From the NCBI RefSeq assembly GCF_021155765.1, contig NC_060117.1:523001-587000 (forward strand): a stretch of 64,000 nt of DNA. The letters are read 5' to 3'. The stretch is from Diprion similis. Taxonomy: Eukaryota > Arthropoda > Insecta > Hymenoptera > Diprionidae. The first letter of the stretch is position 1. The number at the start of each line of letters is the position of its first letter. The notes beneath the pieces are model-generated. The model saw only the letters and a program-made list of their open reading frames with translations, had not been told where the DNA came from and searched no databases. This document shows, piece after piece, positions 3,865-29,601 of this stretch. Both the position numbers and the translations under genes were made by a program.

Positions 3865-4870
3865 TGGTACAGAAGAATGAACCCATCGCAGAAGAAAGAA
3901 GACAACTGAAGAATGAAGAGGATACTATGCCAGAAGGATACAATCATCCAGAAGAGGATAGTACCGAGGGAAGCAAGGCCGCCATCGAAGGAAGGGGACA
4001 CCATCCAAAAAAGAAAACGCTGTTTAGAAAAGAACACACTATCGTAGGAGAAGAATCCCGTCGAGAGAAGAGGACGCTATCGTGAGAAGAGGATGCCATC
4101 GTGACGAGAGGACGCCATCATGAGAAGAAAACGCCATTCAGAGAATAGGACACCATCAAAGGAAAAAGATCCCATCAAGGAGACGGGATGCAATCGAGGA
4201 CGAAGGACACTGTTTAGAAAAGAGGACACTATCAAAGGAGGAGGAAGCCATCGAGGACGAAGACGCTACCGAAGGATGTGGATGCCATCAAGGGACGTGG
4301 ACGCCATCGAGGGATGAAGATGCCATTGAAGGATGTGGATGCCATCGAGGGATGAAGATGCCATTGAAGGATGTAGACGCCATCGAGGGATGAAGATGCC
4401 ATTGAAGGATGTGGACGCCATCGAGGGATGAAGATGCCATTGAAGGATGTGGACGCCATCGAGGAACGTGGACGCCATCGAGGGACGTGGACGCCATCGA
4501 GGGACGTGGACGCCATCGAGGGACGTGGACGCCATCGAGGGACGTGGACGCCATCGAGGGACGTGGACGCCATCGAGGGACGTGGACGCCATCGAGGGAC
4601 GTGGACGCCATCGAGGGACGTGAACGCCATCGAAGGATGTGGACGCCATCGAGGGACGTGAACGCTATCGAAGGATGTGGACGCCATCGAGGGACGTGAA
4701 CGTCATCGAAGGATGTGGACGCCATCGAGGGACGTGGACGCAATCGACGTAAGAAAATGGTATCGAGGGAACGGGACACCATCAGGGGCAGAAAACGTTG
4801 TTGAGCGAATAGGTCGCCGACCAGGAAGCACGACGCCACCAAGAGAAGATGACGCTATTAAGAAGATGTG
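3865..4870. repeat. 19-bp minisatellite with pure core and degenerate flanks
   Basis: The core (about 4310-4745) is built from the 19-bp unit GGACGCCATCGAGGGACGT. About nine nearly identical units sit at 4460-4625. To the left (4318-4455) two variants alternate to make 38-bp dimers containing GATGCCATTGAAGGATGTG. Both flanks (3865-4260 and 4745-4870) keep degraded units such as GACGCCATC or GACACCATC. Because 19 is not a multiple of 3 and the unit has no stop in several frames, open frames of 64 to 184 codons appear on both strands with a 19-residue period. I read these as a by-product of the repeat, not genes. Confidence 0.92.
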
Positions 4871-6727: not shown

Positions 6728-8143
6728 CTATGCTGTTCGAAGCATTCTAGCTTCTTTCTTTTCCTGCAATTCTCGCTTTTGCTCTTCGATTACTAATTTT
6801 CGTTCTTCCAAAAATTGGCCATATTCTACAGGATCTAATTCACGTACAATACGAATTCCACAACTACGAGCCACACCAACAAACATTTGGCAGATTTGTT
6901 TCAAATCCATTAAAGCCATAGAAGGATCTTCAGATTTGATCTTAGCAATTTCATACAAATGTTTCAATGTTATTTTGCCAGCTACTTCTTGACCTGCAAA
7001 AAAATAATAATTTTGTTTACTAACACATATTGTTTGGAACTAGAAAAATATATTCCAGTATAGATTACACTCGACTGTGAAATCAGTTACTTTCTTAAAA
7101 GTATCGTAGACTGCCTTCATTTAGTCACTTTCGAATGGATAATGCAGGGTGAACGATTGCTTACTAAATGCAACTAGTGAAAGACTGGGAAAGTTATACA
7201 TAAATAGCAAGTTCATCGGTGATGTATGCCGAACTAACCACTACAGAGAGTCATTGTCAAATTTTAATATTGATTGATAGTAAATTTTTTTTTAATGTAC
7301 AGCGTGGTACATTCATTTATCACATGTATGTAACTATCATCATGCATCAGGAAAGGTCAGGGTGCTTTATTGAACCCCATACATAACGGCAGTGTGAATT
7401 ATAGGAATGTAACTTGTGGTCCGGCATACAAAGCTTTCAAGTATGTCTTGAATTCTTGTATATCCGATGAAGAACAATTGAACTTTTAGCTCAGAAAAGT
7501 GGGAGTATCTAATTTTGATTAATTCGTCATAACCATATGAAACGAGGGAAAGAAAGCGAATGGTAACACTGACCAGAGTGCATTGCACCACGCTGAATTC
7601 CAGCAGCTTGCTTTAAATAAAAAGTTGCTGGTGGCTTGTGGATCACCAAGTCATAAGTGCGGTCAGAGGTCACTCGTACTCGACAAGGCAATGGAATTCC
7701 TTCTTTGATATCTTTGGTTCTCTCATTAAAATCTTTGCAAAAAGCTGCAATGTTTATGTTCCGCTGAAACAGATGGTTACGTTTTTACTATCGGTGTTAC
7801 AGTAACTCCAGTTGAAGGTCTAAATTCTAGCAATGAGTCAAAAATTCACTACTTGCATGATGGGTGAATTTGTAAAAATGTAAGATTAATGATCAAATAA
7901 GTAGCATTAGGAAGAAGCACAGTTTGAAATGCAAAAGAATGACCCTATATATTCGGACAGATCATTGCGCAAAGATGCAATAGTAAATAGTATCAATTCA
8001 AACCTAACCTGTCCAAGGACAGGTCCTAGCGGCGGACTGGGCATTGCCATACCAGCCGGTATATCGGTCTTCAGTTTCGATGAATGATCCACTTTCGCGA
8101 CAGCTTTTCTCATCGACTTTAATTTCCCTCCGGCTCGAGACAT
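6728..8143 (-). CDS. mRpL11: Large mitoribosomal subunit protein L11 (uL11m), three exons
   Basis: Coding exons on the minus strand are 8143-8009, 7763-7574 and 6993-6728; phases join cleanly to 196 residues, normal for uL11m. The N-terminal half carries the L11 signature with SPPLGPVLGQ at residues 36-45, then NINIAAFCKDFNERT and the rRNA-binding C-terminal domain (KITLKHLYEIAKIK..MALMDLKQICQMFVGVARSCGI). A charged, probably helical tail (EERKLVIEEQKRELQEKKEAR) extends past the bacterial-type domain, as in animal mitochondrial L11. The family builds the stalk base near the GTPase centre of the mitochondrial ribosome. Both introns are GT-AG. The start was chosen because SRAGGKLKS is the usual animal N-terminus. 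A short inverted-repeat element begins 138 bp upstream. Confidence 0.96.
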
Positions 8144-8280
8144 TTCTGTACCGTAATCTTAGATAGAGTTGTTTTTGTAAGGCTCGAGTATTACGTTTCT
8201 AATTGAGGCTCTAAACGGCAACTCGCAAAAATGTAAGACGGGTCACGCTGTTCAGGCGGTGGATTGCTGGTGGTACTTTA

Positions 8281-8577: not shown

Positions 8578-8757
<180 letters not shown>

Positions 8758-8765
8758 TTTTGTTG

Positions 8766-9040
8766 ACCCGAAAACCTTTTGTTTCAGAATCAATTCGTAT
8801 GACCGTTTCTGGACTAAATGGACTGCCTGAGACACAGAAAACGCACCACGAAGAGTATAGGACCAACAGTGGACAATTAAGTTAAGCGAAAATATCTAAA
8901 AAAATCAAACCGCAATTCTATTTAGCGAATAATTGTAGAAGTGCTATACTCTGACACTACACACATGTACTATAATTAGGGCATATTGAATAAACTGGAG
9001 TTAAACTTTGGAAACTATGAGATTGTGACTCATCTTCCCC
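8766..9040 (+). repeat. Strongly diverged satellite monomer at the left edge of the array
   Basis: From about 8766, CCGAAAAC..CAGAATCAATTCGTATGACCGTTTCT..GAGTATAGGACCAACAG lines up in order with the array monomer's CCGAAAATT..CGGAATCGATTTGTATGACCATCTCT..GAGCGTAGGACCAGCAG. Similarity over roughly 110 bases is evident but only around two thirds. A faint AGGGCAT match near 8980 fits the later part of the monomer, with extra bases that make the spacing to the next copy about 346 instead of 312. Confidence 0.65.
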
Positions 9041-12000
9041 TCTTCCTCATGCCGTCAAAATTTTCGCCAAAAATCCAAAGGGGTAAGCCTTACTTTTTTG
9101 GTCATTTTCGGAGCCGAAAATTTCTCGTCTCGGAATCGATTTGTATGACCATCTCTTGAGTATTTCGACTCCCAGGAACTCGGAAAAAACATAAAAAAGA
9201 GCGTAGGACCAGCAGCAGAGAAATGACGACGAAAATCATGAGTTTTTCGGCTGTAACTTTTTAGCTATCGCTCGCAGCGTATTGGGACTGCGCTTAATCG
9301 ATTCCTCTCGCGAAAATACGTCAGGATAGGGCATGCAAAAGTTTATTGCAGCACTTTTCGGAATCGTCGAAATTTTCGCCAAAAATCCAAAGGGGTAAGC
9401 CTTACTTTTTTGGTCATTTTCGGAGCCAAAAATTTCTCGTCTCGGAATCGATCTGTATGACCATCTCTAGAGTAATTCGACCCCGGGGAACTCGGAAAAA
9501 ACATAAAAAAGAGCGTAGGATCAGCAGCAGAGAAATGACGACGAAAATCATGAGTTTTTCGGCTGTAACTTTTCAGCTATCGCTCGCAGCGTATTGGGAC
9601 TGCGCTTAATCGATTCCTCTCGCGAAAATACGTCGGGATAGGGCATGCAAAAGTGAATTGCAGCACTTTTCGGAATCGTTGGAATTTTCGCCAAAAATCC
9701 AAAGGGGTAAGCCTTACTTTTTTGGTCATTTTCGAAACCAAAAATTTCTCGTCTCGGAATCGATTTGTATGACCATCTCTAGAGTAATTCGACCCCCAGG
9801 AACTCGGAAAAAACACAAAAAAGAGCGTAGGATCAGCAGCAGAGAAATGACGACGAAAATCATGAGTTTTTCGGCTGTAACTTTTTAGCTATCGCTCGCA
9901 GCGTATTGGGACTGCGCTTAATCGATTCCTCTCGCGAAAATACGTCGGGATAGGGCATGCAAAAGTGAATTGCAGCACTTTTCGGAATCGTTGGAATTTT
10001 CGCCAAAAATCCAAAGGGGTAAGCCTTACTTTTTTGGTCATTTTCGAAACCAAAAATTTCTCGTCTCGGAATCGATTTGTATGACCATCTCTAGAGTAAT
10101 TCGACCCCCAGGAACTCGGAAAAAACACAAAAAAGAGCGTAGGATCAGCAGCAGAGAAATGACGACGAAAATCATGAGTTTTTCGGCTGTAACTTTTTAG
10201 CTATCGCTCGCAGCGTATTGGAACTGCGCTTAATCGATTCCTCTCGCGAAAATACGTCAGGATAGGGCATGCAAAAGTTGATTGCAGCACTTTTCGGAAT
10301 CGTCGAAATTTTCGCCAGAAATCCAAAGGGGTAAGCCTTACTTTTTTGGTCATTTTTGGGGCCAAAAATTTCTCGTCTCGGAATCAATTTGTATGACCAT
10401 CTCTAGAGTAATTCGACCCCCAGGAACTCGGAAAAAACATAAAAAAGAGCGTAGGATCAGCAGCAGAGAAATGACGACGAAAATCATGAGTTTTTCGGCT
10501 GTAACTTTTTAGCTATCGCTCGCAGCGTATTGGGACTGCGCTTAATCGATTCCTCTCGCGAAAATACGTCGGAATAGGGCATGCAAAAGTGAATTGCAGC
10601 ACTTTTCGGAATCGTTGAAATTTTCGCCAAAAATCCAAAGGGGTAAGCCTTACTTTTTTGGTCATTTTCGGAGCCAAAAATTTCTCGTCTCGGAATCGAT
10701 TTGTATGACCATCTCTAGAGTAATTCGACCCCCAGGAACTCGGAAAAAACATAAAAAAGAGCGTAGGACCAGCAGCAGAGAAATCACGACAAAAATCATG
10801 AGTTTTTCGGCTGTAACTTTTTAGCTATCGCTCGCAGCGTATTGGGACTGCGCTTAATCGATTCCTCTCGCGAAAATACGTCGGAATAGGGCATGCAAAA
10901 GTGAATTGCAGCACTTTTCGGAATCGTCGAAATTTTCGCCAAAAATCCAAAGGGGTAAGCCTTACTTTTTTGGTCATTTTCGGAGCCAAAAATTTCTCGT
11001 CTCGGAATCGATTTGTATGACCATCTCTAGAGTAATTCGACCCCCAGGAACTCGGAAAAAACATAAAAAAGAGCGTAGGATCAGCAGCAGAGAAATGACG
11101 ACGAAAATCATGAGTTTTTCGGCTGTAACTTTTCAGCTATCGCTCGCAGCGTATTGGGACTGCGCTTAATCGATTCCTCTCGCGAAAATACGTCGGGATA
11201 GGGCATGCAAAAGTTGATTGCAGCACTTTTCGGAATCGTTGAAATTTTCGCCAAAAATCCAGAGGGGTAAGCCTTACTTTTTTGGTCATTTTCGGAGACG
11301 AAAATTTCTCGTCTCGGAATCGATTTGTATGACCATCTCTAGAGTATTTCGACCCCCAGGAACTCGGAAAAAACATAAAAAAGAGCGTAGGACCAGCAGC
11401 AGAGAAATGACGACGAAAATCATGAGTTTTTCGGCTGTAACTTTTTAGCTATCGCTCGCAGCGTATTGGAACTGCGCTTAATCGATTCCTCCCGCGAAAA
11501 TACGTCGGGATAGGGCATGCAAAAGTTGATTGCAGCACTTTTCGGAATCGTTGAAATTTTCGCCAAAAATCCAAAGGGGTAAGCCTTACTTTTTTGGTCA
11601 TTTTCGGAGCCAAAAATTTCTCGTCTCGGAATCGATTTGTATGACCATCGCTAGAGTAATTCGACCCCCAGGAACTCGGAAAAAACATAAAAAAGAGCGT
11701 AGGATCAGCAGCAGAGAAATGACGACGAAAATCATGAGTTTTTCGGCTGTAACTTTTTAGCTATCGCTCGCAGCGTATTGGAACTGCGCTTAATCGATTC
11801 CTCTCGCGAAAATACGTCAGGATAGGGCATGCAAAAGTTGATAGCAGCACTTTTCGGAATCGTCGAAATTTTCGCCAAAAATCCAAAGGGGTAAGCCTTA
11901 CTTTTTTGGTCATTTTTGGAGCCAAAAATTTCTCGTCTCGGAATCCATTTGTATGACCATCTCTAGAGTAATTCGACCCCCAGGAACTCGGAAAAAACAC

Positions 12001-15000
12001 AAAAAAGAGCGTAGGATCAGCAGCAGAGAAATGACGACGAAAATCATGAGTTTTTCGGCTGTAACTTTTCAGCTATCGCTCGCAGCGTATTGGGACTGCG
12101 CTTAATCGATTCCTCTCGCGAAAATACGTCGGGATAGGGCATGCAAAAGTTGATTGCAGCACTTTTCGGAATCGTTGAAATTTTCGCCAAAAATCCAAAG
12201 GGGTAAGCCTTACTTTTTTGGTCATTTTCGGAGACGAAAATTTCTCGTCTCGGAATCGATTTGTATGACCATCTCTAGAGTATTTCGACCCCCAGGAACT
12301 CGGAAAAAACATAAAAAAGAGCGTAGGACCAGCAGCAGAGAAATGACGACGAAAATCATGAGTTTTTCGGCTGTAACTTTTCAGCTATCGCTCGCAGCGT
12401 ATTGGGACTGCGCTTAATCGATTCCTCTCGCGAAAATACGTCGGGATAGGGCATGCAAAAGTTGATTGCAGCACTTTTCGGAATCGTTGAAATTTTCGCC
12501 AAAAATCCAAAGGGGTAAGCCTTACTTTTTTGGTCATTTTCGGAGACGAAAATTTCTCGTCTCGGAATCGATTTGTATGACCATCTCTAGAGTAATTCGA
12601 CCCCCAGGAACTCGGAAAAAACATAAAAAAGAGCGTAGGATCAGCAGCAGAGAAATGACGACGAAAATCATGAGTTTTTCGGCTGTAACTTTTCAGCTAT
12701 CGCTCGCAGCGTATTGGGACTGCGCTTAATCGATTCCTCTCGCGAAAATACGTCGGGATAGGGCATGCAAAAGTTGATTGCAGCACTTTTCGGAATCGTT
12801 GAAATTTTCGCCAAAAATCCAAAGGGGTAAGCCTTACTTTTTTGGTCATTTTCGGAGACGAAAATTTCTCGTCTCGGAATCGATTTGTATGACCATCTCT
12901 AGAGTATTTCGACCCCCAGGAACTCGGAAAAAACATAAAAAAGAGCGTAGGACCAGCAGCAGAGAAATGACGACGAAAATCATGAGTTTTTCGGCTGTAA
13001 CTTTTTAGCTATCGCTCGCAGCGTATTGGAACTGCGCTTAATCGATTCCTCTCGCGAAAATACGTCAGGATAGGGCATGCAAAAGTTGATTGCAGCACTT
13101 TTCGGAATCGTCGAAATTTTCGCCAAAAATCCAAAGGGGTAAGCCTTACTTTTTTGGTCATTTTTGGAGCCAAAAATTTCTCGTCTCGGAATCCATTTGT
13201 ATGACCATCTCTAGAGTAATTCGACCCCCAGGAACTCGGAAAAAACATAAAAAAGAGCGTAGGATCAGCAGCAGAGAAATGACGACGAAAATCATGAGTT
13301 TTTCGGCTGTAACTTTTCAGCTATCGCTCGCAGCGTATTGGGACTGCGCTTAATCGATTCCTCTCGCGAAAATACGTCGGGATAGGGCATGCAAAAGTTG
13401 ATTGCAGCACTTTTCGGAATCGTTGAAATTTTCGCCAAAAATCCAAAGGGGTAAGCCTTACTTTTTTGGTCATTTTCGGAGACGAAAATTTCTCGTCTCG
13501 GAATCGATTTGTATGACCATCTCTAGAGTAATTCGACCCCCAGGAACTCGGAAAAAACATAAAAAAGAGCGTAGGATCAGCAGCAGAGAAATGACGACGA
13601 AAATCATGAGTTTTTCGGCTGTAACTTTTCAGCTATCGCTCGCAGCGTATTGGGACTGCGCTTAATCGATTCCTCTCGCGAAAATACGTCGGGATAGGGC
13701 ATGCAAAAGTTGATTGCAGCACTTTTCGGAATCGTTGAAATTTTCGCCAAAAATCCAAAGGGGTAAGCCTTACTTTTTTGGTCATTTTCGGAGACGAAAA
13801 TTTCTCGTCTCGGAATCGATTTGTATGACCATCTCTAGAGTATTTCGACCCCCAGGAACTCGGAAAAAACATAAAAAAGAGCGTAGGACCAGCAGCAGAG
13901 AAATGACGACGAAAATCATGAGTTTTTCGGCTGTAACTTTTTAGCTATCGCTCGCAGCGTATTGGGACTGCGCTTAATCGATTCCTCTCGCGAAAATACG
14001 TCGGAATAGGGCATGCAAAAGTGAATTGCAGCACTTTTCGGAATCGTTGAAATTTTCGCCAAAAATCCAAAGGGGTGAGCCTTACTTTTTTGGTCATTTT
14101 CGGAGCCAAAAATTTCTCGTCTCGGAATCGATTTGTATGACCATCTCTAGAGTAATTCGACCCCCAGGAACTCGGAAAAAACATAAAAAAGAGCGTAGGA
14201 TCAGCAGCAGAGAAATGACGACGAAAATCATGAGTTTTTCGGCTGTAACTTTTTAGCTATCGCTCGCAGCGTATTGTAACTGCGCTTAATCGATTCCTCT
14301 CGCGAAAATACGTCGGGATAGGGCATGCAAAAGTTGATTGCAGCACTTTTCGGAATCGTCGAAATTTTCGCCAAAAATCCAAAGGGGTAAGCCTTACTTT
14401 TTTGGTCATTTTCGGAGACGAAAATTTCTCGTCTCGGAATCGATTTGTATGACCATCTCTAGAGTATTTCGACCCCCAGGAACTCGGAAAAAACATAAAA
14501 AAGAGCGTAGGACCAGCAACAGAGAAATGACGACGAAAATCATGAGTTTTTCGGCTGTAACTTTTTAGCTATCGCTCGCAGCGTATTGGGACTGCGCTTA
14601 ATCGATTCCTCTCGCGAAAATACGTCAGGATAGGGCATGCAAAAGTTGATTGCAGCACTTTTCGGAATCGTCGAAATTTTCGCCAAAAATCCAAAGGGGT
14701 AAGCCTTACTTTTTTGGTCATTTTCGGAGCCAAAAATTTCTCGTCTCGGAATCGAATTGTATGACCATCTCTAGAGTACTTCGACCCCCAGGAACTCGGA
14801 AAAAACATAAAAAAGAGCGTAGGATCAGCAGCAGAGAAATGACGAGGAAAATCATGAGTTTTTCGGCTGTAACTTTTCAGCTATCGCTCGCAGCGTATTG
14901 GGACTGCGCTTAATCGATTCCTCTCGCGAAAATACGTCGGGATAGGGCATGCAAAAGTTGATTGCAGCACTTTTCGGAATCGTCGAAATTTTCGCCAAAA

Positions 15001-18000
15001 ATCCAAAGGGGTAAGCCTTACTTTTTTGGTCATTTTCGGAGCCGAAAATTTCTCGTCTCGGAATCGATTTGTATGACCATCTCTAGAGTAATTCGACCCC
15101 CAGGAACTCGGAAAAAACATAAAAAAGAGCGTAGGATCAGCAGCAGAGAAATGACGACGAAAATCATGAGTTTTTCGGCTGTAACTTTTTAGCTGTCGCT
15201 CGCAGCGTATTAGGACTACGCTTAATCGATTCCTCTCGCGAAAATACGTCGGGATAGGGCATGCAAAAGTTGATTGCAGCACTTTTCGGAATCGTCGAAA
15301 TTTTCGCCAAAAATCCAAAGGGGTAAGCCTTACTTTTTTGGTCATTTTCGGAGCCAAAAATTTCTCGTCTCGGAATCGAATTGTATGACCATCTCTAGAG
15401 TACTTCGACCCCCAGGAACTCGGAAAAAACATAAAAAAGAGCGTAGGATCAGCAGCAGAGAAATGACGACGAAAATCATGAGTTTTTCGGCTGTAACTTT
15501 TCAGCTATCGCTCGCAGCGTATTGGGACTGCGCTTAATCGATTCCTCTTGCGAAAATACTTCGGGATAGGGCATGCAAAAGTTGATTGCCGCACTTTTCG
15601 GAATCGTCGAAATTTTCGCCATAAATCCAAAGGGGTAAGCCTTACTTTTTTGGTCATTTTCGGAGCCAAAAATTTCTCGTCTCGGAATCGATTTGTATGA
15701 CCATCTCTAGAGTACTTCGACCCCCAGGAACTCGGAAAAAACATAAAAAAGAGCGTAGGATCAGCAGCAGAGAAATGACGACGAAAATCATGAGTTTTTC
15801 GGCTGTAACTTTTCAGCTATCGCTCGCAGCGTATTGGGACTGCGCTTAATCGATTCCTCTCGCGAAAATACGTCGGGATAGGGCATGCAAAAGTTGATTG
15901 CAGCACTTTTCGGAATCGTCGAAATTTTCGCCAAAAATCCAAAGGGGTAAGCCTTACTTTTTTGGTCATTTTCGGAGCCGAAAATTTCTCGTCTCGGAAT
16001 CGATTTGTATGACCATCTCTAGAGTAATTCGACCCCCAGGAACTCGGAAAAAACATAAAAAAGAGCGTAGGATCAGCAGCAGAGAAATGACGACGAAAAT
16101 CATGAGTTTTTCGGCTGTAACTTTTTAGCTGTCGCTCGCAGCGTATTAGGACTACGCTTAATCGATTCCTCTCGCGAAAATACGTCGGGATAGGGCATGC
16201 AAAAGTTGATTGCAGCACTTTTCGGAATCGTCGAAATTTTCGCCAAAAATCCAAAGGGGTAAGCCTTACTTTTTTGGTCATTTTCGGAGCCAAAAATTTC
16301 TCGTCTCGGAATCGAATTGTATGACCATCTCTAGAGTACTTCGACCCCCAGGAACTCGGAAAAAACATAAAAAAGAGCGTAGGATCAGCAGCAGAGAAAT
16401 GACGACGAAAATCATGAGTTTTTCGGCTGTAACTTTTCAGCTATCGCTCGCAGCGTATTGGGACTGCGCTTAATCGATTCCTCTCGCGAAAATACGTCGG
16501 GATAGGGCATGCAAAAGTTGATTGCCGCACTTTTCGGAATCGTCGAAATTTTCGCCATAAATCCAAAGGGGTAAGCCTTACTTTTTTGGTCATTTTCGGA
16601 GCCAAAAATTTCTCGTCTCGGAATCGAATTGTATGACCATCTCTAGAGTACTTCGACCCCCAGGAACTCGGAAAAAACATAAAAAAGAGCGTAGGATCAG
16701 CAGCAGAGAAATGACGACGAAAATCATGAGTTTTTCGGCTGTAACTTTTTAGCTATCGCTCGCAGCGTATTGGAACTGCGCTTAATCGATTCCTCTCGCG
16801 AAAATACGTCGGGATAGGGCATGCAAAAGTTGATTGCAGCACTTTTCGGAATCGTCGAAATTTTCGCCAAAAATCCAAAGGGGTAAGCCTTACTTTTTTG
16901 GTCATTTTCGGAGACGAAAATTTCTCGTCTCGGAATCGATTTGTATGACCATCTCTAGAGTATTTCGACCCCCAGGAACTCGGAAAAAACATAAAAAAGA
17001 GCGTAGGACCAGCAACAGAGAAATGACGACGAAAATCATGAGTTTTTCGGCTGTAACTTTTTAGCTATCGCTCGCAGCGTATTGGGACTGCGCTTAATCG
17101 ATTCCTCTCGCGAAAATACGTCAGGATAGGGCATGCAAAAGTTGATTGCAGCACTTTTCGGAATCGTCGAAATTTTCGCCAAAAATCCAAAGGGGTAAGC
17201 CTTACTTTTTTGGTCATTTTCGGAGCCAAAAATTTCTCGTCTCGGAATCGAATTGTATGACCATCTCTAGAGTACTTCGACCCCCAGGAACTCGGAAAAA
17301 ACATAAAAAAGAGCGTAGGATCAGCAGCAGAGAAATGACGAGGAAAATCATGAGTTTTTCGGCTGTAACTTTTCAGCTATCGCTCGCAGCGTATTGGGAC
17401 TGCGCTTAATCGATTCCTCTCGCGAAAATACGTCGGGATAGGGCATGCAAAAGTTGATTGCAGCACTTTTCGGAATCGTCGAAATTTTCGCCAAAAATCC
17501 AAAGGGGTAAGCCTTACTTTTTTGGTCATTTTCGGAGCCGAAAATTTCTCGTCTCGGAATCGATTTGTATGACCATCTCTAGAGTAATTCGACCCCCAGG
17601 AACTCGGAAAAAACATAAAAAAGAGCGTAGGATCAGCAGCAGAGAAATGACGACAAAAATCATGAGTTTTTCGGCTGTAACTTTTTAGCTGTCGCTCGCA
17701 GCGTATTAGGACTACGCTTAATCGATTCCTCTCGCGAAAATACGTCGGGATAGGGCATGCAAAAGTTGATTGCAGCACTTTTCGGAATCGTCGAAATTTT
17801 CGCCAAAAATCCAAAGGGGTAAGCCTTACTTTTTTGGTCATTTTCGGAGCCAAAAATTTCTCGTCTCGGAATCGAATTGTATGACCATCTCTAGAGTACT
17901 TCGACCCCCAGGAACTCGGAAAAAACATAAAAAAGAGCGTAGGATCAGCAGCAGAGAAATGACGACGAAAATCATGAGTTTTTCGGCTGTAACTTTTCAG

Positions 18001-21000
18001 CTATCGCTCGCAGCGTATTGGGACTGCGCTTAATCGATTCCTCTCGCGAAAATACGTCGGGATAGGGCATGCAAAAGTTGATTGCCGCACTTTTCGGAAT
18101 CGTCGAAATTTTCGCCATAAATCCAAAGGGGTAAGCCTTACTTTTTTGGTCATTTTCGGAGCCAAAAATTTCTCGTCTCGGAATCGAATTGTATGACCAT
18201 CTCTAGAGTACTTCGACCCCCAGGAACTCGGAAAAAACATAAAAAAGAGCGTAGGATCAGCAGCAGAGAAATGACGACGAAAATCATGAGTTTTTCGGCT
18301 GTAACTTTTTAGCTATCGCTCGCAGCGTATTGGAACTGCGCTTAATCGATTCCTCTCGCGAAAATACGTCGGGATAGGGCATGCAAAAGTTGATTGCAGC
18401 ACTTTTCGGAATCGTCGAAATTTTCGCCAAAAATCCAAAGGGGTAAGCCTTACTTTTTTGGTCATTTTCGGAGACGAAAATTTCTCGTCTCGGAATCGAT
18501 TTGTATGACCATCTCTAGAGTATTTCGACCCCCAGGAACTCGGAAAAAACATAAAAAAGAGCGTAGGACCAGCAACAGAGAAATGACGACGAAAATCATG
18601 AGTTTTTCGGCTGTAACTTTTTAGCTATCGCTCGCAGCGTATTGGGACTGCGCTTAATCGATTCCTCTCGCGAAAATACGTCAGGATAGGGCATGCAAAA
18701 GTTGATTGCAGCACTTTTCGGAATCGTCGAAATTTTCGCCAAAAATCCAAAGGGGTAAGCCTTACTTTTTTGGTCATTTTCGGAGCCAAAAATTTCTCGT
18801 CTCGGAATCGAATTGTATGACCATCTCTAGAGTACTTCGACCCCCAGGAACTCGGAAAAAACATAAAAAAGAGCGTAGGATCAGCAGCAGAGAAATGACG
18901 AGGAAAATCATGAGTTTTTCGGCTGTAACTTTTCAGCTATCGCTCGCAGCGTATTGGGACTGCGCTTAATCGATTCCTCTCGCGAAAATACGTCGGGATA
19001 GGGCATGCAAAAGTTGATTGCAGCACTTTTCGGAATCGTCGAAATTTTCGCCAAAAATCCAAAGGGGTAAGCCTTACTTTTTTGGTCATTTTCGGAGCCG
19101 AAAATTTCTCGTCTCGGAATCGATTTGTATGACCATCTCTAGAGTAATTCGACCCCCAGGAACTCGGAAAAAACATAAAAAAGAGCGTAGGATCAGCAGC
19201 AGAGAAATGACGACGAAAATCATGAGTTTTTCGGCTGTAACTTTTTAGCTGTCGCTCGCAGCGTATTAGGACTACGCTTAATCGATTCCTCTCGCGAAAA
19301 TACGTCGGGATAGGGCATGCAAAAGTTGATTGCAGCACTTTTCGGAATCGTCGAAATTTTCGCCAAAAATCCAAAGGGGTAAGCCTTACTTTTTTGGTCA
19401 TTTTCGGAGCCAAAAATTTCTCGTCTCGGAATCGAATTGTATGACCATCTCTAGAGTACTTCGACCCCCAGGAACTCGGAAAAAACATAAAAAAGAGCGT
19501 AGGATCAGCAGCAGAGAAATGACGACGAAAATCATGAGTTTTTCGGCTGTAACTTTTCAGCTATCGCTCGCAGCGTATTGGGACTGCGCTTAATCGATTC
19601 CTCTCGCGAAAATACGTCGGGATAGGGCATGCAAAAGTTGATTGCAGCACTTTTCGGAATCGTCGAAATTTTCGCCAAAAATCCAAAGGGGTAAGCCTTA
19701 CTTTTTTGGTCATTTTCGGAGCCGAAAATTTCTCGTCTCGGAATCGATTTGTATGACCATCTCTAGAGTAATTCGACCCCCAGGAACTCGGAAAAAACAT
19801 AAAAAAGAGCGTAGGATCAGCAGCAGAGAAATGACGACGAAAATCATGAGTTTTTCGGCTGTAACTTTTTAGCTGTCGCTCGCAGCGTATTAGGACTACG
19901 CTTAATCGATTCCTCTCGCGAAAATACGTCGGGATAGGGCATGCAAAAGTTGATTGCAGCACTTTTCGGAATCGTCGAAATTTTCGCCAAAAATCCAAAG
20001 GGGTAAGCCTTACTTTTTTGGTCATTTTCGGAGCCAAAAATTTCTCGTCTCGGAATCGAATTGTATGACCATCTCTAGAGTACTTCGACCCCCAGGAACT
20101 CGGAAAAAACATAAAAAAGAGCGTAGGATCAGCAGCAGAGAAATGACGACGAAAATCATGAGTTTTTCGGCTGTAACTTTTCAGCTATCGCTCGCAGCGT
20201 ATTGGGACTGCGCTTAATCGATTCCTCTTGCGAAAATACGTCGGGATAGGGCATGCAAAAGTTGATTGCCGCACTTTTCGGAATCGTCGAAATTTTCGCC
20301 AAAAATCCAAAGGGGTAAGCCTTACTTTTTTGGTCATTTTTGGAGCCAAAAATTTTTCGTCTCGGAATCCATTTGTATGACCATCTCTAGAGTAATTCGA
20401 CCCCCAGGAACTCGGAAAAAACATAAAAAAGAGCGTAGGATCAGCAGCAGAGAAATGACGACGAAAATCATGAGTTTTTCGGCTGTAACTTTTCAGCTAT
20501 CGCTCGCAGCGTATTGGGACTGCGCTTAATCGATTCCTCTCGCGAAAATACGTCGGGATAGGGCATGCAAAAGTTGATTGCAGCACTTTTCGGAATCGTT
20601 GAAATTTTCGCCAAAAATCCAAAGGGGTAAGCCTTACTTTTTTGGTCATTTTCGGAGACGAAAATTTCTCGTCTCGGAATCGATTTGTATGACCATCTCT
20701 AGAGTATTTCGACCCCCAGGAACTCGGAAAAAACATAAAAAAGAGCGTAGGACCAGCAGCAGAGAAATGACGACGAAAATCATGAGTTTTTCGGCTGTAA
20801 CTTTTCAGCTATCGCTCGCAGCGTATTGGGACTGCGCTTAATCGATTCCTCTCGCGAAAATACGTCGGGATAGGGCACGCAAAAGTTGATTGCAGCACTT
20901 TTCGGAATCGTTGAAATTTTCGCCAAAAATCCAAAGGGGTAAGCCTTACTTTTTTGGTCATTTTCGGAGACGAAAATTTCTCGTCTCGGAATCGATTTGT

Positions 21001-24000
21001 ATGACCATCTCTAGAGTAATTCGACCCCCAGGAACTCGGAAAAAACATAAAAAAGAGCGTAGGATCAGCAGCAGAGAAATGACGACGAAAATCATGAGTT
21101 TTTCGGCTGTAACTTTTCAGCTATCGCTCGCAGCGTATTGGGACTGCGCTTAATCGATTCCTCTCGCGAAAATACGTCGGGATAGGGCATGCAAAAGTTG
21201 ATTGCAGCACTTTTCGGAATCGTTGAAATTTTCGCCAAAAATCCAAAGGGGTAAGCCTTACTTTTTTGGTCATTTTCGGAGACGAAAATTTCTCGTCTCG
21301 GAATCGATTTGTATGACCATCTCTAGAGTATTTCGACCCCCAGGAACTCGGAAAAAACATGAAAAAGAGCGTAGGACCAGCAGCAGAGAAATGACGACGA
21401 AAATCATGAGTTTTTCGGCTGTAACTTTTTAGCTATCGCTCGTAGCGTATTGGGACTGCGCTTAATCGATTCCTCTCGCGAAAATACGTCGGAATAGGGC
21501 ATGCAAAAGTGAATTGCAGCACTTTTCGGAATCGTTGAAATTTTCGCCAAAAATCCAAAGGGGTAAGCCTTACTTTTTTGGTCATTTTCGGAGCCAAAAA
21601 TTTCTCGTCTCGGAATCGATTTGTATGACCATCTCTAGAGTAATTCGACCCCCAGGAACTCGGAAAAAACATAAAAAAGAGCGTAGGATCAGCAGCAGAG
21701 AAATGACGACGAAAATCATGAGTTTTTCGGCTGTAACTTTTTAGCTATCGCTCGCAGCGTATTGGAACTGCGCTTAATCGATTCCTCTCGCGAAAATACG
21801 TCGGGATAGGGCATGCAAAAGTTGATTGCAGCACTTTTCGGAATCGTCGAAATTTTCGCCAAAAATCCAAAGGGGTAAGCCTTACTTTTTTGGTCATTTT
21901 CGGAGACGAAAATTTCTCGTCTCGGAATCGATTTGTATGACCATCTCTAGAGTATTTCGACCCCCAGGAACTCGGAAAAAACATAAAAAAGAGCGTAGGA
22001 CCAGCAACAGAGAAATGACGACGAAAATCATGAGTTTTTCGGCTGTAACTTTTTAGCTATCGCTCGCAGCGTATTGGGACTGCGCTTAATCGATTCCTCT
22101 CGCGAAAATACGTCAGGATAGGGCATGCAAAAGTTGATTGCAGCACTTTTCGGAATCGTCGAAATTTTCGCCAAAAATCCAAAGGGGTAAGCCTTACTTT
22201 TTTGGTCATTTTCGGAGCCAAAAATTTCTCGTCTCGGAATCGAATTGTATGACCATCTCTAGAGTACTTCGACCCCCAGGAACTCGGAAAAAACATAAAA
22301 AAGAGCGTAGGATCAGCAGCAGAGAAATGACGAGGAAAATCATGAGTTTTTCGGCTGTAACTTTTCAGCTATCGCTCGCAGCGTATTGGGACTGCGCTTA
22401 ATCGATTCCTCTCGCGAAAATACGTCGGGATAGGGCATGCAAAAGTTGATTGCAGCACTTTTCGGAATCGTCGAAATTTTCGCCAAAAATCCAAAGGGGT
22501 AAGCCTTACTTTTTTGGTCATTTTCGGAGCCGAAAATTTCTCGTCTCGGAATCGATTTGTATGACCATCTCTAGAGTAATTCGACCCCCAGGAACTCGGA
22601 AAAAACATAAAAAAGAGCGTAGGATCAGCAGCAGAGAAATGACGACGAAAATCATGAGTTTTTCGGCTGTAACTTTTTAGCTGTCGCTCGCAGCGTATTA
22701 GGACTACGCTTAATCGATTCCTCTCGCGAAAATACGTCGGGATAGGGCATGCAAAAGTTGATTGCAGCACTTTTCGGAATCGTCGAAATTTTCGCCAAAA
22801 ATCCAAAGGGGTAAGCCTTACTTTTTTGGTCATTTTCGGAGCCAAAAATTTCTCGTCTCGGAATCGAATTGTATGACCATCTCTAGAGTACTTCGACCCC
22901 CAGGAACTCGGAAAAAACATAAAAAAGAGCGTAGGATCAGCAGCAGAGAAATGACGACGAAAATCATGAGTTTTTCGGCTGTAACTTTTCAGCTATCGCT
23001 CGCAGCGTATTGGGACTGCGCTTAATCGATTCCTCTCGCGAAAATACGTCAGGATAGGGCATGCAAAAGTTGATTGCAGCACTTTTCGGAATCGTCGAAA
23101 TTTTCGCCAAAAATCCAAAGGGGTAAGCCTTACTTTTTTGGTCATTTTCGGAGCCAAAAATTTCTCGTCTCGGAATCGAATTGTATGACCATCTCTAGAG
23201 TACTTCGACCCCCAGGAACTCGGAAAAAACATAAAAAAGAGCGTAGGATCAGCAGCAGAGAAATGACGAGGAAAATCATGAGTTTTTCGGCTGTAACTTT
23301 TCAGCTATCGCTCGCAGCGTATTGGGACTGCGCTTAATCGATTCCTCTCGCGAAAATACGTCGGGATAGGGCATGCAAAAGTTGATTGCAGCACTTTTCG
23401 GAATCGTCGAAATTTTCGCCAAAAATCCAAAGGGGTAAGCCTTACTTTTTTGGTCATTTTCGGAGCCGAAAATTTCTCGTCTCGGAATCGATTTGTATGA
23501 CCATCTCTAGAGTAATTCGACCCCCAGGAACTCGGAAAAAACATAAAAAAGAGCGTAGGATCAGCAGCAGAGAAATGACGACGAAAATCATGAGTTTTTC
23601 GGCTGTAACTTTTTAGCTGTCGCTCGCAGCGTATTAGGACTACGCTTAATCGATTCCTCTCGCGAAAATACGTCGGGATAGGGCATGCAAAAGTTGATTG
23701 CAGCACTTTTCGGAATCGTCGAAATTTTCGCCAAAAATCCAAAGGGGTAAGCCTTACTTTTTTGGTCATTTTCGGAGCCAAAAATTTCTCGTCTCGGAAT
23801 CGAATTGTATGACCATCTCTAGAGTACTTCGACCCCCAGGAACTCGGAAAAAACATAAAAAAGAGCGTAGGATCAGCAGCAGAGAAATGACGACGAAAAT
23901 CATGAGTTTTTCGGCTGTAACTTTTCAGCTATTGCTCGCAGCGTATTGGGACTGCGCTTAATCGATTCCTCTTGCGAAAATACGTCGGGATAGGGCATGC

Positions 24001-27000
24001 AAAAGTTGATTGCCGCACTTTTCGGAATCGTCGAAATTTTCGCCATAAATCCAAAGGGGTAATCCTTACTTTTTTGGTCATTTTCGGAGCCAAAAATTTC
24101 TCGTCTCGGAATCGATTTGTATGACCATCTCTAGAGTACTTCGACCCCCAGGAACTCGGAAAAAACATAAAAAAGAGCGTAGGATCAGCAGCAGAGAAAT
24201 GACGACGAAAATCATGAGTTTTTCGGCTGTAACTTTTCAGCTATCGCTCGCAGCGTATTGGGACTGCGCTTAATCGATTCCTCTCGCGAAAATACGTCGG
24301 GATAGGGCATGCAAAAGTTGATTGCAGCACTTTTCGGAATCGTCGAAATTTTCGCCAAAAATCCAAAGGGGTAAGCCTTACTTTTTTGGTCATTTTCGGA
24401 GCCGAAAATTTCTCGTCTCGGAATCGATTTGTATGACCATCTCTAGAGTAATTCGACCCCCAGGAACTCGGAAAAAACATAAAAAAGAGCGTAGGATCAG
24501 CAGCAGAGAAATGACGACGAAAATCATGAGTTTTTCGGCTGTAACTTTTTAGCTGTCGCTCGCAGCGTATTAGGACTACGCTCAATCGATTCCTCTCGCG
24601 AAAATACGTCGGGATAGGGCATGCAAAAGTTGATTGCAGCACTTTTCGGAATCGTCGAAATTTTCGCCAAAAATCCAAAGGGGTAAGCCTTACTTTTTTG
24701 GTCATTTTCGGAGCCAAAAATTTCTCGTCTCGGAATCGAATTGTATGACCATCTCTAGAGTACTTCGACCCCCAGGAACTCGGAAAAAACATAAAAAAGA
24801 GCGTAGGATCAGCAGCAGAGAAATGACGACGAAAATCATGAGTTTTTCGGCTGTAACTTTTCAGCTATCGCTCGCAGCGTATTGGGACTGCGCCTAATCG
24901 ATTCCTCTTGCGAAAATACGTCGGGATAGGGCATGCAAAAGTTGATTGCCGCACTTTTCGGAATCGTCGAAATTTTCGCCAAAAATCCAAAGGGGTAAGC
25001 CTTACTTTTTTGGTCATTTTTGGAGCCAAAAATTTTTCGTCTCGGAATCCATTTGTATGACCATCTCTAGAGTAATTCGACCCCCAGGAACTCGGAAAAA
25101 ACATAAAAAAGAGCGTAGGATCAGCAGCAGAGAAATGACGACGAAAATCATGAGTTTTTCGGCTGTAACTTTTCAGCTATCGCTCGCAGCGTATTGGGAC
25201 TGCGCTTAATCGATTCCTCTCGCGAAAATACGTCGGGATAGGGCATGCAAAAGTTGATTGCAGCACTTTTCGGAATCGTTGAAATTTTCGCCAAAAATCC
25301 AAAGGGGTAAGCCTTACTTTTTTGGTCATTTTCGGAGACGAAAATTTCTCGTCTCGGAATCGATTTGTATGACCATCTCTAGAGTATTTCGACCCCCAGG
25401 AACTCGGAAAAAACATAAAAAAGAGCGTAGGACCAGCAGCAGAGAAATGACGACGAAAATCATGAGTTTTTCGGCTGTAACTTTTCAGCTATCGCTCGCA
25501 GCGTATTGGGACTGCGCTTAATCGATTCCTCTCGCGAAAATACGTCGGGATAGGGCATGCAAAAGTTGATTGCAGCACTTTTCGGAATCGTTGAAATTTT
25601 CGCCAAAAATCCAAAGGGGTAAGCCTTACTTTTTTGGTCATTTTCGGAGACGAAAATTTCTCGTCTCGGAATCGATTTGTATGACCATCTCTAGAGTCAT
25701 TCGACCCCCAGGAACTCGGAAAAAACATAAAAAAGAGCGTAGGATCAGCAGCAGAGAAATGACGACGAAAATCATGAGTTTTTCGGCTGTAACTTTTCAG
25801 CTATCGCTCGCAGCGTATTGGGACTGCGCTTAATCGATTCCTCTCGCGAAAATACGTCGGGATAGGGCATGCAAAAGTTGATTGCAGCACTTTTCGGAAT
25901 CGTTGAAATTTTCGCCAAAAATCCAAAGGGGTAAGCCTTACTTTTTTGGTCATTTTCGGAGACGAAAATTTCTCGTCTCGGAATCGATTTGTATGACCAT
26001 CTCTAGAGTATTTCGACCCCCAGGAACTCGGAAAAAACATAAAAAAGAGCGTAGGACCAGCAGCAGAGAAATGACGACGAAAATCATGAGTTTTTCGGCT
26101 GTAACTTTTTAGCTATCGCTCGTAGCGTATTGAGACTGCGCTTAATCGATTCCTCTCGCGAAAATACGTCGGAATAGGGCATGCAAAAGTGAATTGCAGC
26201 ACTTTTCGGAATCGTTGAAATTTTCGCCAAAAATCCAAAGGGGTAAGCCTTACTTTTTTGGTCATTTTCGGAGCCAAAAATTTCTCGTCTCGGAATCGAT
26301 TTGTATGACCATCTCTAGAGTAATTCGACCCCCAGGAACTCGGAAAAAACATAAAAAAGAGCGTAGGATCAGCAGCAGAGAAATGACGACGAAAATCATG
26401 AGTTTTTCGGCTGTAACTTTTTAGCTATCGCTCGCAGCGTATTGGAACTGCGCTTAATCGATTCCTCTCGCGAAAATACGTCGGGATAGGGCATGCAAAA
26501 GTTGATTGCAGCACTTTTCGGAATCGTCGAAATTTTCGCCAAAAATCCAAAGGGGTAAGCCTTACTTTTTTGGTCATTTTCGGAGACGAAAATTTCTCGT
26601 CTCGGAATCGATTTGTATGACCATCTCTAGAGTATTTCGACCCCCAGGAACTCGGAAAAAACATAAAAAAGAGCGTAGGACCAGCAACAGAGAAATGACG
26701 ACGAAAATCATGAGTTTTTCGGCTGTAACTTTTTAGCTATCGCTCGCAGCGTATTGGGACTGCGCTTAATCGATTCCTCTCGCGAAAATACGTCAGGATA
26801 GGGCATGCAAAAGTTGATAGCAGCACTTTTCGGAATCGTCGAAATTTTCGCCAAAAATCCAAAGGGGTAAGCCTTACTTTTTTGGTCATTTTCGGAGCCA
26901 AAAATTTCTCGTCTCGGAATCGAATTGTATGACCATCTCTAGAGTATTTCGACCCCCAGGAACTCGGAAAAAACATAAAAAAGAGCGTAGGATCAGCAGC

Positions 27001-29215
27001 AGAGAAATGACGACGAAAATCATGAGTTTTTCGGCTGTAACTTTTTAGCTATCGCTCGCAGCGTATTGGAACTGCGCTTAATCGATTCCTCTCGCGAAAA
27101 TACGTCGGGATAGGGCATGCAAAAGTTGATTGCAGCACTTTTCGGAATCGTCGAAATTTTCGCCAAAAATCCAAAGGGGTAAGCCTTACTTTTTTGGTTA
27201 TTTTCGGAGACGAAAATTTCTCGTCTCGGAATCGATTTGTATGACCATCTCTAGAGTATTTCGACCCCCAGGAACTCGGAAAAAACATAAAAAAGAGCGT
27301 AGGACCAGCAACAGAGAAATGACGACGAAAATCATGAGTTTTTCGGCTGTAACTTTTTAGCTATCGCTCGCAGCGTATTGGGACTGCGCTTAATCGATTC
27401 CTCTCGCGAAAATACGTCAGGATAGGGCATGCAAAAGTTGATTGCAGCACTTTTCGGAATCGTCGAAATTTTCGCCAAAAATCCAAAGGGGTAAGCCTTA
27501 CTTTTTTGGTCATTTTCGGAGCCAAAAATTTCTCGTCCCGGAATCGAATTGTATGACCATCTCTAGAGTACTTCGACCCCCAGGAACTCGGAAAAAACAT
27601 AAAAAAGAGCGTAGGATCAGCAGCAGAGAAATGACGAGGAAAATCATGAGTTTTTCGGCTGTAACTTTTCAGCTATCGCTCGCAGCGTATTGGGACTGCG
27701 CTTAATCGATTCCTCCCGCGAAAATACGTCGGGATAGGGCATGCAAAAGTTGATTGCAGCACTTTTCGGAATCGTCGAAATTTTCGCCAAAAATCCAAAG
27801 GGGTAAGCCTTACTTTTTTGGTCATTTTCGGAGCCGAAAATTTCTCGTCTCGGAATCGATTTGTATGACCATCTCTAGAGTAATTCGACCCCCAGGAACT
27901 CGGAAAAAACATAAAAAAGAGCGTAGGATCAGCAGCAGAGAAATGACGACGAAAATCATGAGTTTTTCGGCTGTAACTTTTTAGCTGTCGCTCGCAGCGT
28001 ATTAGGACTACGCTTAATCGATTCCTCTCGCGAAAATACGTCGGGATAGGGCATGCAAAAGTTGATTGCAGCACTTTTCGGAATCGTCGAAATTTTCGCC
28101 AAAAATCCAAAGGGGTAAGCCTTACTTTTTTGGTCATTTTCGGAGCCAAAAATTTCTCGTCTCGGAATCGAATTGTATGACCATCTCTAGAGTACTTCGA
28201 CCCCCAGGAACTCGGAAAAAACATAAAAAAGAGCGTAGGATCAGCAGCAGAGAAATGACGACGAAAATCATGAGTTTTTCGGCTGTAACTTTTCAGCTAT
28301 CGCTCGCAGCGTATTGGGACTGCGCTTAATCGATTCCTCTCGCGAAAATACGTCGGGATAGGGCATGCAAAAGTTGATTGCCGCACTTTTCGGAATCGTC
28401 GAAATTTTCGCCATAAATCCAAAGGGGTAAGCCTTACTTTTTTGGTCATTTTCGGAGCCAAAAATTTCTCGTCTCGGAATCGATTTGTATGACCATCTCT
28501 AGAGTACTTCGACCCCCAGGAACTCGGAAAAAACATAAAAAAGAGCGTAGGATCAGCAGCAGAGAAATGACGACGAAAATCATGAGTTTTTCGGCTGTAA
28601 CTTTTCAGCTATCGCTCGCAGCGTATTGGGACTGCGCTTAATCGATTCCTCTCGCGAAAATACGTCGGGATAGGGCATGCAAAAGTTGATTGCAGCACTT
28701 TTCGGAATCGTCGAAATTTTCGCCAAAAATCCAAAGGGGTAAGCCTTACTTTTTTGGTCATTTTCGGAGCCGAAAATTTTTCGTTTCGGAATCTATTTGT
28801 ATGACCATCTCTGGAGTAATTCGACCCCAGGAACTCGGAAAAAACATCAAAAAGTGCGTAGGACCAGCAGCAGAGAAATGACGATGAAAATCATGAGTTT
28901 TCTGGCTGTAACTTTTCAGCTATCACTCGCACCGTATTGGGACTGCGCCTAATCGATTCCTCTCGCAAAATTACGTCGGAATAGGGCATGCAAAAATTGA
29001 CTGCAGCACTTCTCAGAACCGTCGAAATTTTCGCCAGAAATACAAAGGGGTAAGCCCCACTTTCTTAGCGATCGTCGGAACTGAAAATTTTTGGCCTTCT
29101 AATCGATTTGTATGACCCCTTTCTGACTACTTGGAACCCTAGGAACTCAAAAAACACATGAAAAACAGCGTAGGACCAAAAGCACAGAAACGACTATCAA
29201 AATCCGCAGTTTTTG
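9041..29215 (+). repeat. 312-bp satellite DNA array, about 65 head-to-tail monomers with higher-order repeats
   Basis: The monomer repeats with a period of exactly 312 bp; the same landmark (GATTGCAGCACTTTTCGG) recurs every 312 bases from about 9343 to 28687 with essentially no indels. Fixed landmarks in each unit are AAGGGGTAAGCCTTACTTT, ATCGATTTGTATGACCATC, TCTCTAGAGT, CAGGAACTCGGAAAAAACA, CGGCTGTAACTTTT, CTCTCGCGAAAATACGTC and GGGCATGCAAAAG. A small set of diagnostic sites (CGGAGCCG/CGGAGCCA/CGGAGACG; ATCGATTTG/ATCGAATTG/ATCCATTTG; GAGTAATT/GAGTATTT/GAGTACTT; TTTTTAGCT/TTTTCAGCT) defines monomer classes arranged in repeating blocks. The final copies after about 28770 are diverged. No CENP-B box was seen in the consensus. 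Short frames of 76 to 87 codons (plus) and 79 codons (minus) occur in nearly every copy but resemble no known protein, so I treat them as incidental. Confidence 0.98.
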
Positions 29216-29312: not shown

Positions 29313-29601
29313 CACACCTGTTCACTAGACCTTCTCACCTTAGATTTTCTCTCGATACCAGGAGCAATTTTCGGCTGAAATTTCTCCGATTCGCCTGATT
29401 TCAAGCGGCTGTAGCATGTAAGCAAGCGATAACGTGTCTTCTCAAGCAAGCAGGCATGCATTAAGATACGCAGTATCAACGTCGCAAGCAGTCAATCAAT
29501 CAGTCCCTGATTTTGGAAGACCTCCTCGGCTCAGAAGTTCTCCCGATACCAGGAGCAATTTTCGGTATATATTTCCCCGAATAGCCTAATTGTAAGTGGA
29601 T
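29313..29601 (+). repeat. Imperfect tandem duplication with about 191-bp spacing
   Basis: The phrase CGATACCAGGAGCAATTTTCGG occurs at 29353 and again at 29544, each preceded by GACC..CTC and followed by a similar ATTTC(T/C)CCGA..GCCTAATT/GCCTGATT segment. The spacing is about 191 bp. It sits just outside the satellite and is a different sequence family. Confidence 0.75.

What the first reader, a model, noticed from the sequence alone, without database searches (positions are those of the whole stretch)
9041..29215. 20-kb array of a 312-bp satellite with almost no length variation
About 65 monomers keep an exact 312-bp period over 20 kb, next to an ordinary gene (mRpL11). The absence of indels in the central copies points to recent or ongoing homogenisation. 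The family is not one I recognise. It could mark pericentromeric or knob heterochromatin inside a gene-bearing region.
Basis: partly seen in the sequence, partly recalled or inferred. Interest (0 to 1): 0.7.

Follow-up and report, generated by a model that had tools for sequence, protein, structure and literature searches.

The report
Dispersed, length-locked 312-bp insect satellite
A 20-kb block of a 312-base repeat beside an ordinary gene is one of many such blocks scattered along this insect's chromosomes; the blocks differ in sequence but, where looked at, nearly all keep the same repeat length.

Summary
In detail: TRF finds 64.6 copies of a 312-bp unit at 9053-29194 with 0% indels, upstream of mRpL11 and on the 3' side of an MTA-type gene. 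It is one of many arrays. A core 27-mer occurs 13,629 times (about 4.25 Mb, 1.6% of a 269-Mb assembly), and capped lists give 58 sites on 11 of 14 chromosome-sized contigs, on both strands. That is a dispersed satellite, not a one-site-per-chromosome centromeric one; satellites of 148 and 279 bp are better centromere candidates.

Homogenisation is local: in 3 of 3 arrays tested, a 38-mer frequent in the array occurs nowhere else in the assembly, and in 19 of 23 arrays monomers are closer to each other than to any other sampled array.

Length is nearly fixed: 23 of 24 sampled arrays have modal length 312, and their consensuses carry 178 substitution alleles and one indel. Degenerate edge copies carry 3.5-5 indels per 100 substitutions, a small control. 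The unit is not coding. Subfamilies A and B, about 15% apart, lie more distally (A) or internally (B).

Best reading: a new family of a known kind, dispersed satellite DNA kept uniform by exchange inside each array.

The parts
9053..28708 (+). Homogenised core: 63 full monomers of exactly 312 bp (subfamily A)
28709..29019 (+). Right edge monomer, 92.6% to consensus, 311 bp
29020..29214 (+). Degenerate partial monomer (77.6% to the window consensus) that ends the array
8765..8869 (+). Degenerate monomer fragment (68.6%, E 8.8e-6) left of the core, just right of a TTG microsatellite
8579..8765 (+). (TTG)n microsatellite between mRpL11 and the array
6728..8158 (-). mRpL11 exons (Ribosomal_L11 and Ribosomal_L11_N domains; the piece at 7907-8158 is below its cut-off); probable start codon near 8143, so the core begins about 0.9 kb upstream of the gene
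   Evidence: start codon inferred by eye from the reading frame
33460..34746 (-). ORF of an MTA-type gene (MTA_R1 domain; GATA zinc finger match just below cut-off); its 3' side faces the array

Best explanation
This is one array of a non-coding satellite family scattered along the chromosomes of an insect with TTAGG telomeres. Shown: the family is genome-wide and dispersed; three of three tested arrays have a private variant; the window array contains repeated multi-monomer blocks; edges decay into divergent monomers; 23 of 24 sampled arrays keep a 312-bp unit although consensuses of the two subfamilies differ by 11-18%. Inferred: new arrays are founded by copies moved between chromosomes; afterwards each array turns over mainly on its own by unequal sister-chromatid exchange or conversion of multi-monomer blocks. 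Because such exchange works best with monomers in register, copies of odd length would tend to be left out of the core and to survive at edges, which can give the length lock without any function for the sequence. No gene-regulatory or centromeric role is shown.
For: Copies: 7115 forward and 6514 reverse, controls 0 and 0. 58 sites on 11 of 14 chromosome-sized contigs, merged by hand from capped lists. Privacy of a 38-mer: 33 of 33 matches in C13 0.533-0.552 Mb, 49 of 49 in C12 17.496-17.512 Mb, 25 of 25 in C10 5.496-5.520 Mb. Like-for-like monomer distances: within an array lower than to the nearest other array in 19 of 23 arrays; for the window 2.5% against 6.6%. Block run of 7 at offset 5. 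Degenerate edges at different monomer phases and no long non-satellite sequence shared among the flanks of 5 arrays. Within subfamilies, arrays on one chromosome are no more alike than arrays on different ones (p = 0.435, 13 same-chromosome pairs). Copies of 300 and 333-342 bp exist and are strongly diverged.
Against: In 4 of 23 arrays (all subfamily B) another array is as close as the array's own monomers (one of the four because a single monomer is out of register), and two arrays on C1 share an identical consensus, so exchange or recent seeding between arrays also happens. Small length changes do occur in core-like copies: of 318 monomers 21 are 313 bp, 4 are 311, one 310 and one 314, one array is 313 bp throughout most of the stretch read, and one 312-bp monomer of C4 19.01 hides a compensating length change. 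Unequal exchange alone does not forbid a whole array from becoming 311 or 313. No raw reads were seen, so collapsed or expanded arrays cannot be excluded. The route of spread was not observed.
Confidence: 0.75

Rival explanations
1. The monomer length is under selection: 312 bp keeps the array phased for chromatin or DNA bending, so length changes are removed even where the sequence drifts.
For: One indel among 24 array consensuses with 178 distinct substitution alleles or 274 parsimony changes, against 11 gaps per 222 substitutions in 7 edge copies (Fisher p 0.0017 and 0.015 against the two counts). AA/TT steps recur every 11.5 bp, about 27 cycles in 312 bp, in all six consensuses tested out of 24 (p <= 0.01, 200 dinucleotide shuffles each); 6 window control stretches give p 0.22 to 0.995.
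Against: The control is small. At the strictest gap cost it is 8 gaps in 230 substitutions, p 0.014 and 0.084. One of the 7 edge copies is the 300-bp one; without it p is 0.005 and 0.039, and 0.088 and 0.22 at the strictest cost. 11.5 bp is not the usual 10-10.5 bp bending period, the six consensuses are homologous, and the 279- and 148-bp satellites also show AA/TT rhythms (10.0 bp, p 0.005; 29.8 bp, p < 0.005), so a rhythm is not special to this family. Exchange in register can also purge odd lengths.
Confidence: 0.17
2. It is the centromeric or pericentromeric satellite of this species.
For: Abundant, with multi-monomer blocks; 14 hits of one variant span C11 0.047-0.214 Mb near a contig start.
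Against: 58 listed sites, two or more on each of 11 contigs, in all tenths of relative position. The 148-bp (149,989 matches) and 279-bp (28,468) families are bigger and occupy several contig starts.
Confidence: 0.05
3. The arrays are carried by a transposable element that holds tandem repeats, such as a Helitron or Helentron.
For: Dispersed on both strands; such carriers are described for oyster (PMC10048060, passages seen).
Against: Flanks of 5 arrays (10 flanks, 1.1-2.1 kb each) share no long sequence: the matches are degenerate monomers and one 29-bp match at 86% (E 6.5e-4); edges end at different monomer phases. Three of the five arrays lie on one contig.
Confidence: 0.08
4. It is a coding repeat, since 312 is a multiple of 3 and one minus-strand frame is open in most subfamily B arrays.
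For: One minus-strand frame has no stop in 11 of 14 subfamily B consensuses. In the window array 183-aa ORFs recur, but in another frame.
Against: In the open frame of subfamily B stop-creating variants number 20 against 14.4 expected and synonymous ones 76 against 76.1 (145 monomers of 13 arrays). All 9 subfamily A consensuses hold 2 or more stops in that frame. The one window ORF scanned has no Pfam match.
Confidence: 0.02

Closest known systems
Satellites of Tribolium castaneum outside the centromere (Cast and TCsat families; PMC10218199, passages seen)
   Same: Tandem families of a few hundred bp in arrays and scattered copies along chromosomes of an insect
   Different: There the 46 novel low-copy families average 18 repeats per annotated array; here one family has 13,629 core matches, arrays of tens of monomers and array-private variants
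Euchromatic arrays of the Drosophila 1.688 satellite (PMC7642928, passages seen)
   Same: Satellite repeats spread in euchromatin, many near genes; no greater likeness within a chromosome
   Different: Those euchromatic repeats do not cluster mainly by array and differ by 23.7% on average; here most sampled arrays are homogenised and the unit length barely changes
Satellites dispersed in the Pacific oyster (review PMC10048060, passages seen)
   Same: Satellite arrays dispersed along all chromosomes
   Different: Oyster arrays are short and often sit with transposable elements; no carrier was found here
Satellites of the sawfly Diprion pini (Rouleux-Bonnin 1996; paper not held, only its citation and one sentence on transcripts seen, in PMC2220036)
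   Same: Possible relative, if the genome is from Diprion or near kin; that guess rests on my recall of 14 chromosomes in that genus and on no call
   Different: No sequence compared; unit length of those families not seen

Membership tests
Satellite DNA (non-coding tandem repeat family) | Head-to-tail tandem arrays of a common unit | tested here: met
Satellite DNA (non-coding tandem repeat family) | No coding constraint | tested here: met
   six frames, 145 B and 138 A monomers
Satellite DNA (non-coding tandem repeat family) | Concerted evolution: copies within an array more alike than copies between arrays | tested here: met
   met in 19 of 23 arrays; private 38-mers in 3 of 3 arrays; not met in 4 subfamily B arrays
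Dispersed euchromatic satellite | Arrays at many sites along the chromosomes | tested here: met
   58 sites on 11 of 14 chromosome-sized contigs, from capped lists
Dispersed euchromatic satellite | Euchromatic chromatin state | not testable with these tools
   no chromatin data; only gene proximity for two arrays
Centromeric satellite | One dominant site per chromosome | tested here: not met
   two or more listed sites on each of 11 contigs; array sizes were not compared genome-wide
Centromeric satellite | CENP-A association | not testable with these tools
   needs ChIP
TE-borne tandem repeat | Common element ends flanking the arrays | tested here: not met
   flanks of 5 arrays, 1.1-2.1 kb per side; a distant shared end is not excluded

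The most novel reading that the evidence does not exclude
The 312-bp length is itself the selected trait: the family keeps 27 turns of an 11.5-bp AA/TT rhythm per unit, so that every array forms one continuous phased fibre, while the letters between are free to drift and each array holds its own version; and the two subfamilies occupy different chromosome domains (distal A, internal B) because exchange runs between arrays that meet in the nucleus.
Probability: 0.1. Interest if true: 0.65.

Novelty: new member of a known kind. Interest (0 to 1): 0.37.

Why it matters
It offers a natural replicate experiment: many arrays of one family in one genome, most of them homogenised on their own, with degenerate edge copies as an internal control. 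That allows a direct test of whether satellite unit length is held by selection or by the mechanics of exchange, and of how satellite copies move between chromosomes beside genes. Unlike the Drosophila 1.688 euchromatic arrays described in PMC7642928 (passages seen), most arrays sampled here are strongly homogenised.

Tried and rejected
Coding repeat: rejected by variant counts (which repeats without one monomer that was out of register and had inflated the subfamily B counts). Structured RNA: the folding energy of one monomer is ordinary (z -0.52) and Rfam has no match in the window at gathering scores. Strand polarity along contigs (plus on the left half, minus on the right): 20/11 against 10/17 sites, p = 0.064, dropped. 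Local spread along one chromosome: p = 0.435. Kinship with the 148- and 279-bp satellites: for the A and B monomers p is 0.04 to 0.82 in 8 comparisons; a 342-bp divergent copy shares a 19-bp stretch with the 279-bp unit (p = 0.007, one of 14 comparisons), too weak to claim. Functional conserved blocks: the longest invariant run is 10 bp, p = 0.22, though changes are unevenly spread (p = 0.021). First versions of two tests were replaced: an indel control with a gap-prone aligner (which put 31 false gaps in the 24 consensus comparisons); and a periodicity test on tandem copies with base shuffles by one on single monomers with dinucleotide shuffles. In the indel control four copies had been picked for their odd length; one search leaves these out except that one of its seven edge copies is the same 300-bp copy, and one search gives the result without it.

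Dropped before counts: the array at C1 12.51 Mb (its own cluster, 2 monomers) from the A/B tests; monomers whose anchor spacing lay outside 270-360 bp from the length table; monomers not exactly 312 bp from the coding test and from the within/between test, so that C10 11.85 (1 such monomer) fell out of the latter.
Full report
Check. TRF reports 9053-29194, period 312, 64.6 copies, 97% matches, 0% indels. Sixty-three consecutive monomers (9053-28708) align without a gap; 41 are distinct and the mean pairwise difference is 2.46%. The array is not a simple ladder: blocks of several monomers are repeated, with 7 near-identical monomers in a row at offset 5 against a maximum of 5 in 1000 shuffles. 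Both edges decay: 92.6% and then 77.6% on the right, and a 68.6% fragment on the left just right of a TTG microsatellite.

Neighbours. mRpL11 lies to the left on the minus strand (Ribosomal_L11 and L11_N domains at 6728-8158). Its probable start codon is about 0.9 kb from the core. To the right Pfam finds an MTA-type ORF, RNA polymerase I A49, DUF4789, and matches below cut-off to rRNA dimethylase and ATG2. The array is inside gene-bearing DNA, about 0.53 Mb from a contig start that carries TTAGG telomere repeats.

Genome. The window is C13:523001-587000 of a 269-Mb assembly in 60 contigs. C1 to C14 are 10.9 to 28.0 Mb long and sum to about 264.5 Mb; I take them as 14 chromosomes. Lengths of C21 to C60 were not seen, but only about 4.5 Mb remain for C15 to C60. 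Diprion or near kin is my recall-based guess from 14 chromosomes and TTAGG ends; no call tests it.

Copy number and map. The core 27-mer with up to 2 mismatches occurs 7115 times forward and 6514 reverse; the backward control gives 0 and 0. At 312 bp each this is about 4.25 Mb, 1.6% of the assembly. Lists are cut at 100 to 150 places per search, so the map is a sample. Places, merged by hand, give 58 sites on 11 of the 14 large contigs, at least two on each, in all tenths of relative position. No site on C5, C9 or C14 was listed; the capped lists do not show that there is none.

Local homogenisation. Three 38-mers, each frequent in one array, were sought in the whole assembly: 33 of 33 matches in the window's array, 49 of 49 in the C12 17.50 array, 25 of 25 in the C10 5.50 array. 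With 312-bp monomers compared like for like, the mean difference within an array is lower than that to the nearest other array in 19 of 23 arrays; for the window it is 2.5% against 6.6%. The four exceptions are subfamily B arrays; one of them (C4 19.01) owes its value to a single monomer that is out of register. Two arrays on C1 share an identical consensus. So arrays evolve largely alone, but some seeding or exchange between arrays is recent.

Two subfamilies. Clustering of 24 array consensuses gives subfamily A (9 arrays, including the window), subfamily B (14) and one outlier. A and B consensuses differ by 14.8% on average (10.9-17.9%), A arrays among themselves by 7.1% and B arrays by 5.7%. 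A lies nearer contig ends than B: median 0.97 against 7.84 Mb, p = 0.0012; in an extended list partly assigned by likeness to the query, 4.06 against 7.43 Mb, 23 against 20 sites, p = 0.010. Contig ends are not all telomeres, so this is a lead. Within subfamilies, arrays on one chromosome are no more alike than arrays on different ones (p = 0.435).

Length lock. Of 318 anchor-to-anchor monomers from 24 arrays, 287 are 312 bp, 21 are 313, 4 are 311, and 6 have other lengths (300, 310, 314, 333, 340, 342). The modal length is 312 in 23 arrays and 313 in one. The 24 consensuses vary at 145 of 313 columns, with 178 distinct substitution alleles or 274 parsimony changes, and one indel, an extra T in a T run. 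The largest difference, 23%, involves the outlier array; among the other 23 arrays it is 17.9%. Seven degenerate edge copies show 11 gaps to 222 substitutions, Fisher p 0.0017 and 0.015 against the two core counts; at the strictest gap cost 8 to 230, p 0.014 and 0.084. Without the one edge copy that is 300 bp long p is 0.005 and 0.039, and 0.088 and 0.22 at the strictest cost. The scarcity of fixed length changes is plain; that it exceeds what neutral copies would show is likely but rests on a small control.

Cause of the lock. Coding is excluded: in the frame that is open in most subfamily B arrays stop-creating variants number 20 against 14.4 expected, and synonymous ones 76 against 76.1. 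Exchange in register would leave odd copies out of the core. Selection on phasing is the rival: AA/TT steps recur every 11.5 bp (27 cycles in 312 bp) in the six consensuses tested, p <= 0.01, and in none of 6 control stretches; but the other two satellites have rhythms too (10.0 and 29.8 bp), and the six are relatives, not independent tests.

Not a centromere. The first 100 bases of C14, C16 and C19 match a 148-bp satellite, and those of C6, C8, C12, C15 and C17 a 279-bp one at 97-100%. The first has 149,989 core matches (about 22.2 Mb), the second 28,468 (about 7.9 Mb). Both are larger than the 312-bp family; neither shows convincing likeness to the A or B monomer.

Spread. Flanks of 5 arrays, 1.1-2.1 kb per side, share no long non-satellite sequence. 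Pieces of the flanks of two other arrays were scanned with Pfam: at C12 17.50 a WD40 protein on one side and weak aldehyde-dehydrogenase matches below cut-off on the other (P5CS by eye); at C7 0.39 no match in 2 pieces. No carrier element is seen. Movement between chromosomes is inferred and its route unknown.

Literature. A search for '312 bp' with satellite DNA and Hymenoptera found 0 papers; one for satellitomes in Hymenoptera found 41, of which 20 were listed and none read for this family except by title and abstract start. This does not show that the family is unpublished, and sequences of published satellites were not compared. Dispersed euchromatic satellites are a known kind (PMC10048060, PMC10218199, PMC7642928; passages seen). 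The review PMC10048060 reports that homogenisation among distant arrays is weak and that array ends diverge, which agrees with what is seen here.

Noticed in passing
C4 0.63-3.0 Mb, starts of C14, C16 and C19 (L062, L064, L067, L100): 148-bp satellite with 149,989 core matches (about 8% of the assembly); in the 3 kb read the best self-match is at 1332 bp (9 units). Candidate centromeric satellite
   Followed up: partly
C1 14.24 Mb, C2 3.53 Mb, starts of C6, C8, C12, C15 and C17 (L101, L054, L056, L060, L063, L065): 279-bp satellite with 28,468 core matches (about 3% of the assembly) and a 10.0-bp AA/TT rhythm, p 0.005
   Followed up: partly
C11 46,963-214,184: One variant of the 312-bp family recurs 14 times over about 170 kb near a contig start, with some spacings that are not multiples of 312; possibly a much larger, interrupted array
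   Followed up: no
C3 3,334,915-3,349,891: Spacing of a variant repeats about every 21 monomers (6552 bp), a higher-order repeat (read by eye)
   Followed up: no
window 4061-4747: 19-bp minisatellite, about 27-36 copies, open in several minus-strand frames
   Followed up: no
window 29350-29570: Two similar stretches around GATACCAGGAGCAATTTTCGG about 190 bp apart, just right of the array (seen by eye)
   Followed up: no
C2 8.81 and C10 11.85 arrays (L092, L097): Divergent monomers of 333-342 bp with about 30 extra bases, by eye in much the same region; perhaps an older, longer form of the unit
   Followed up: partly
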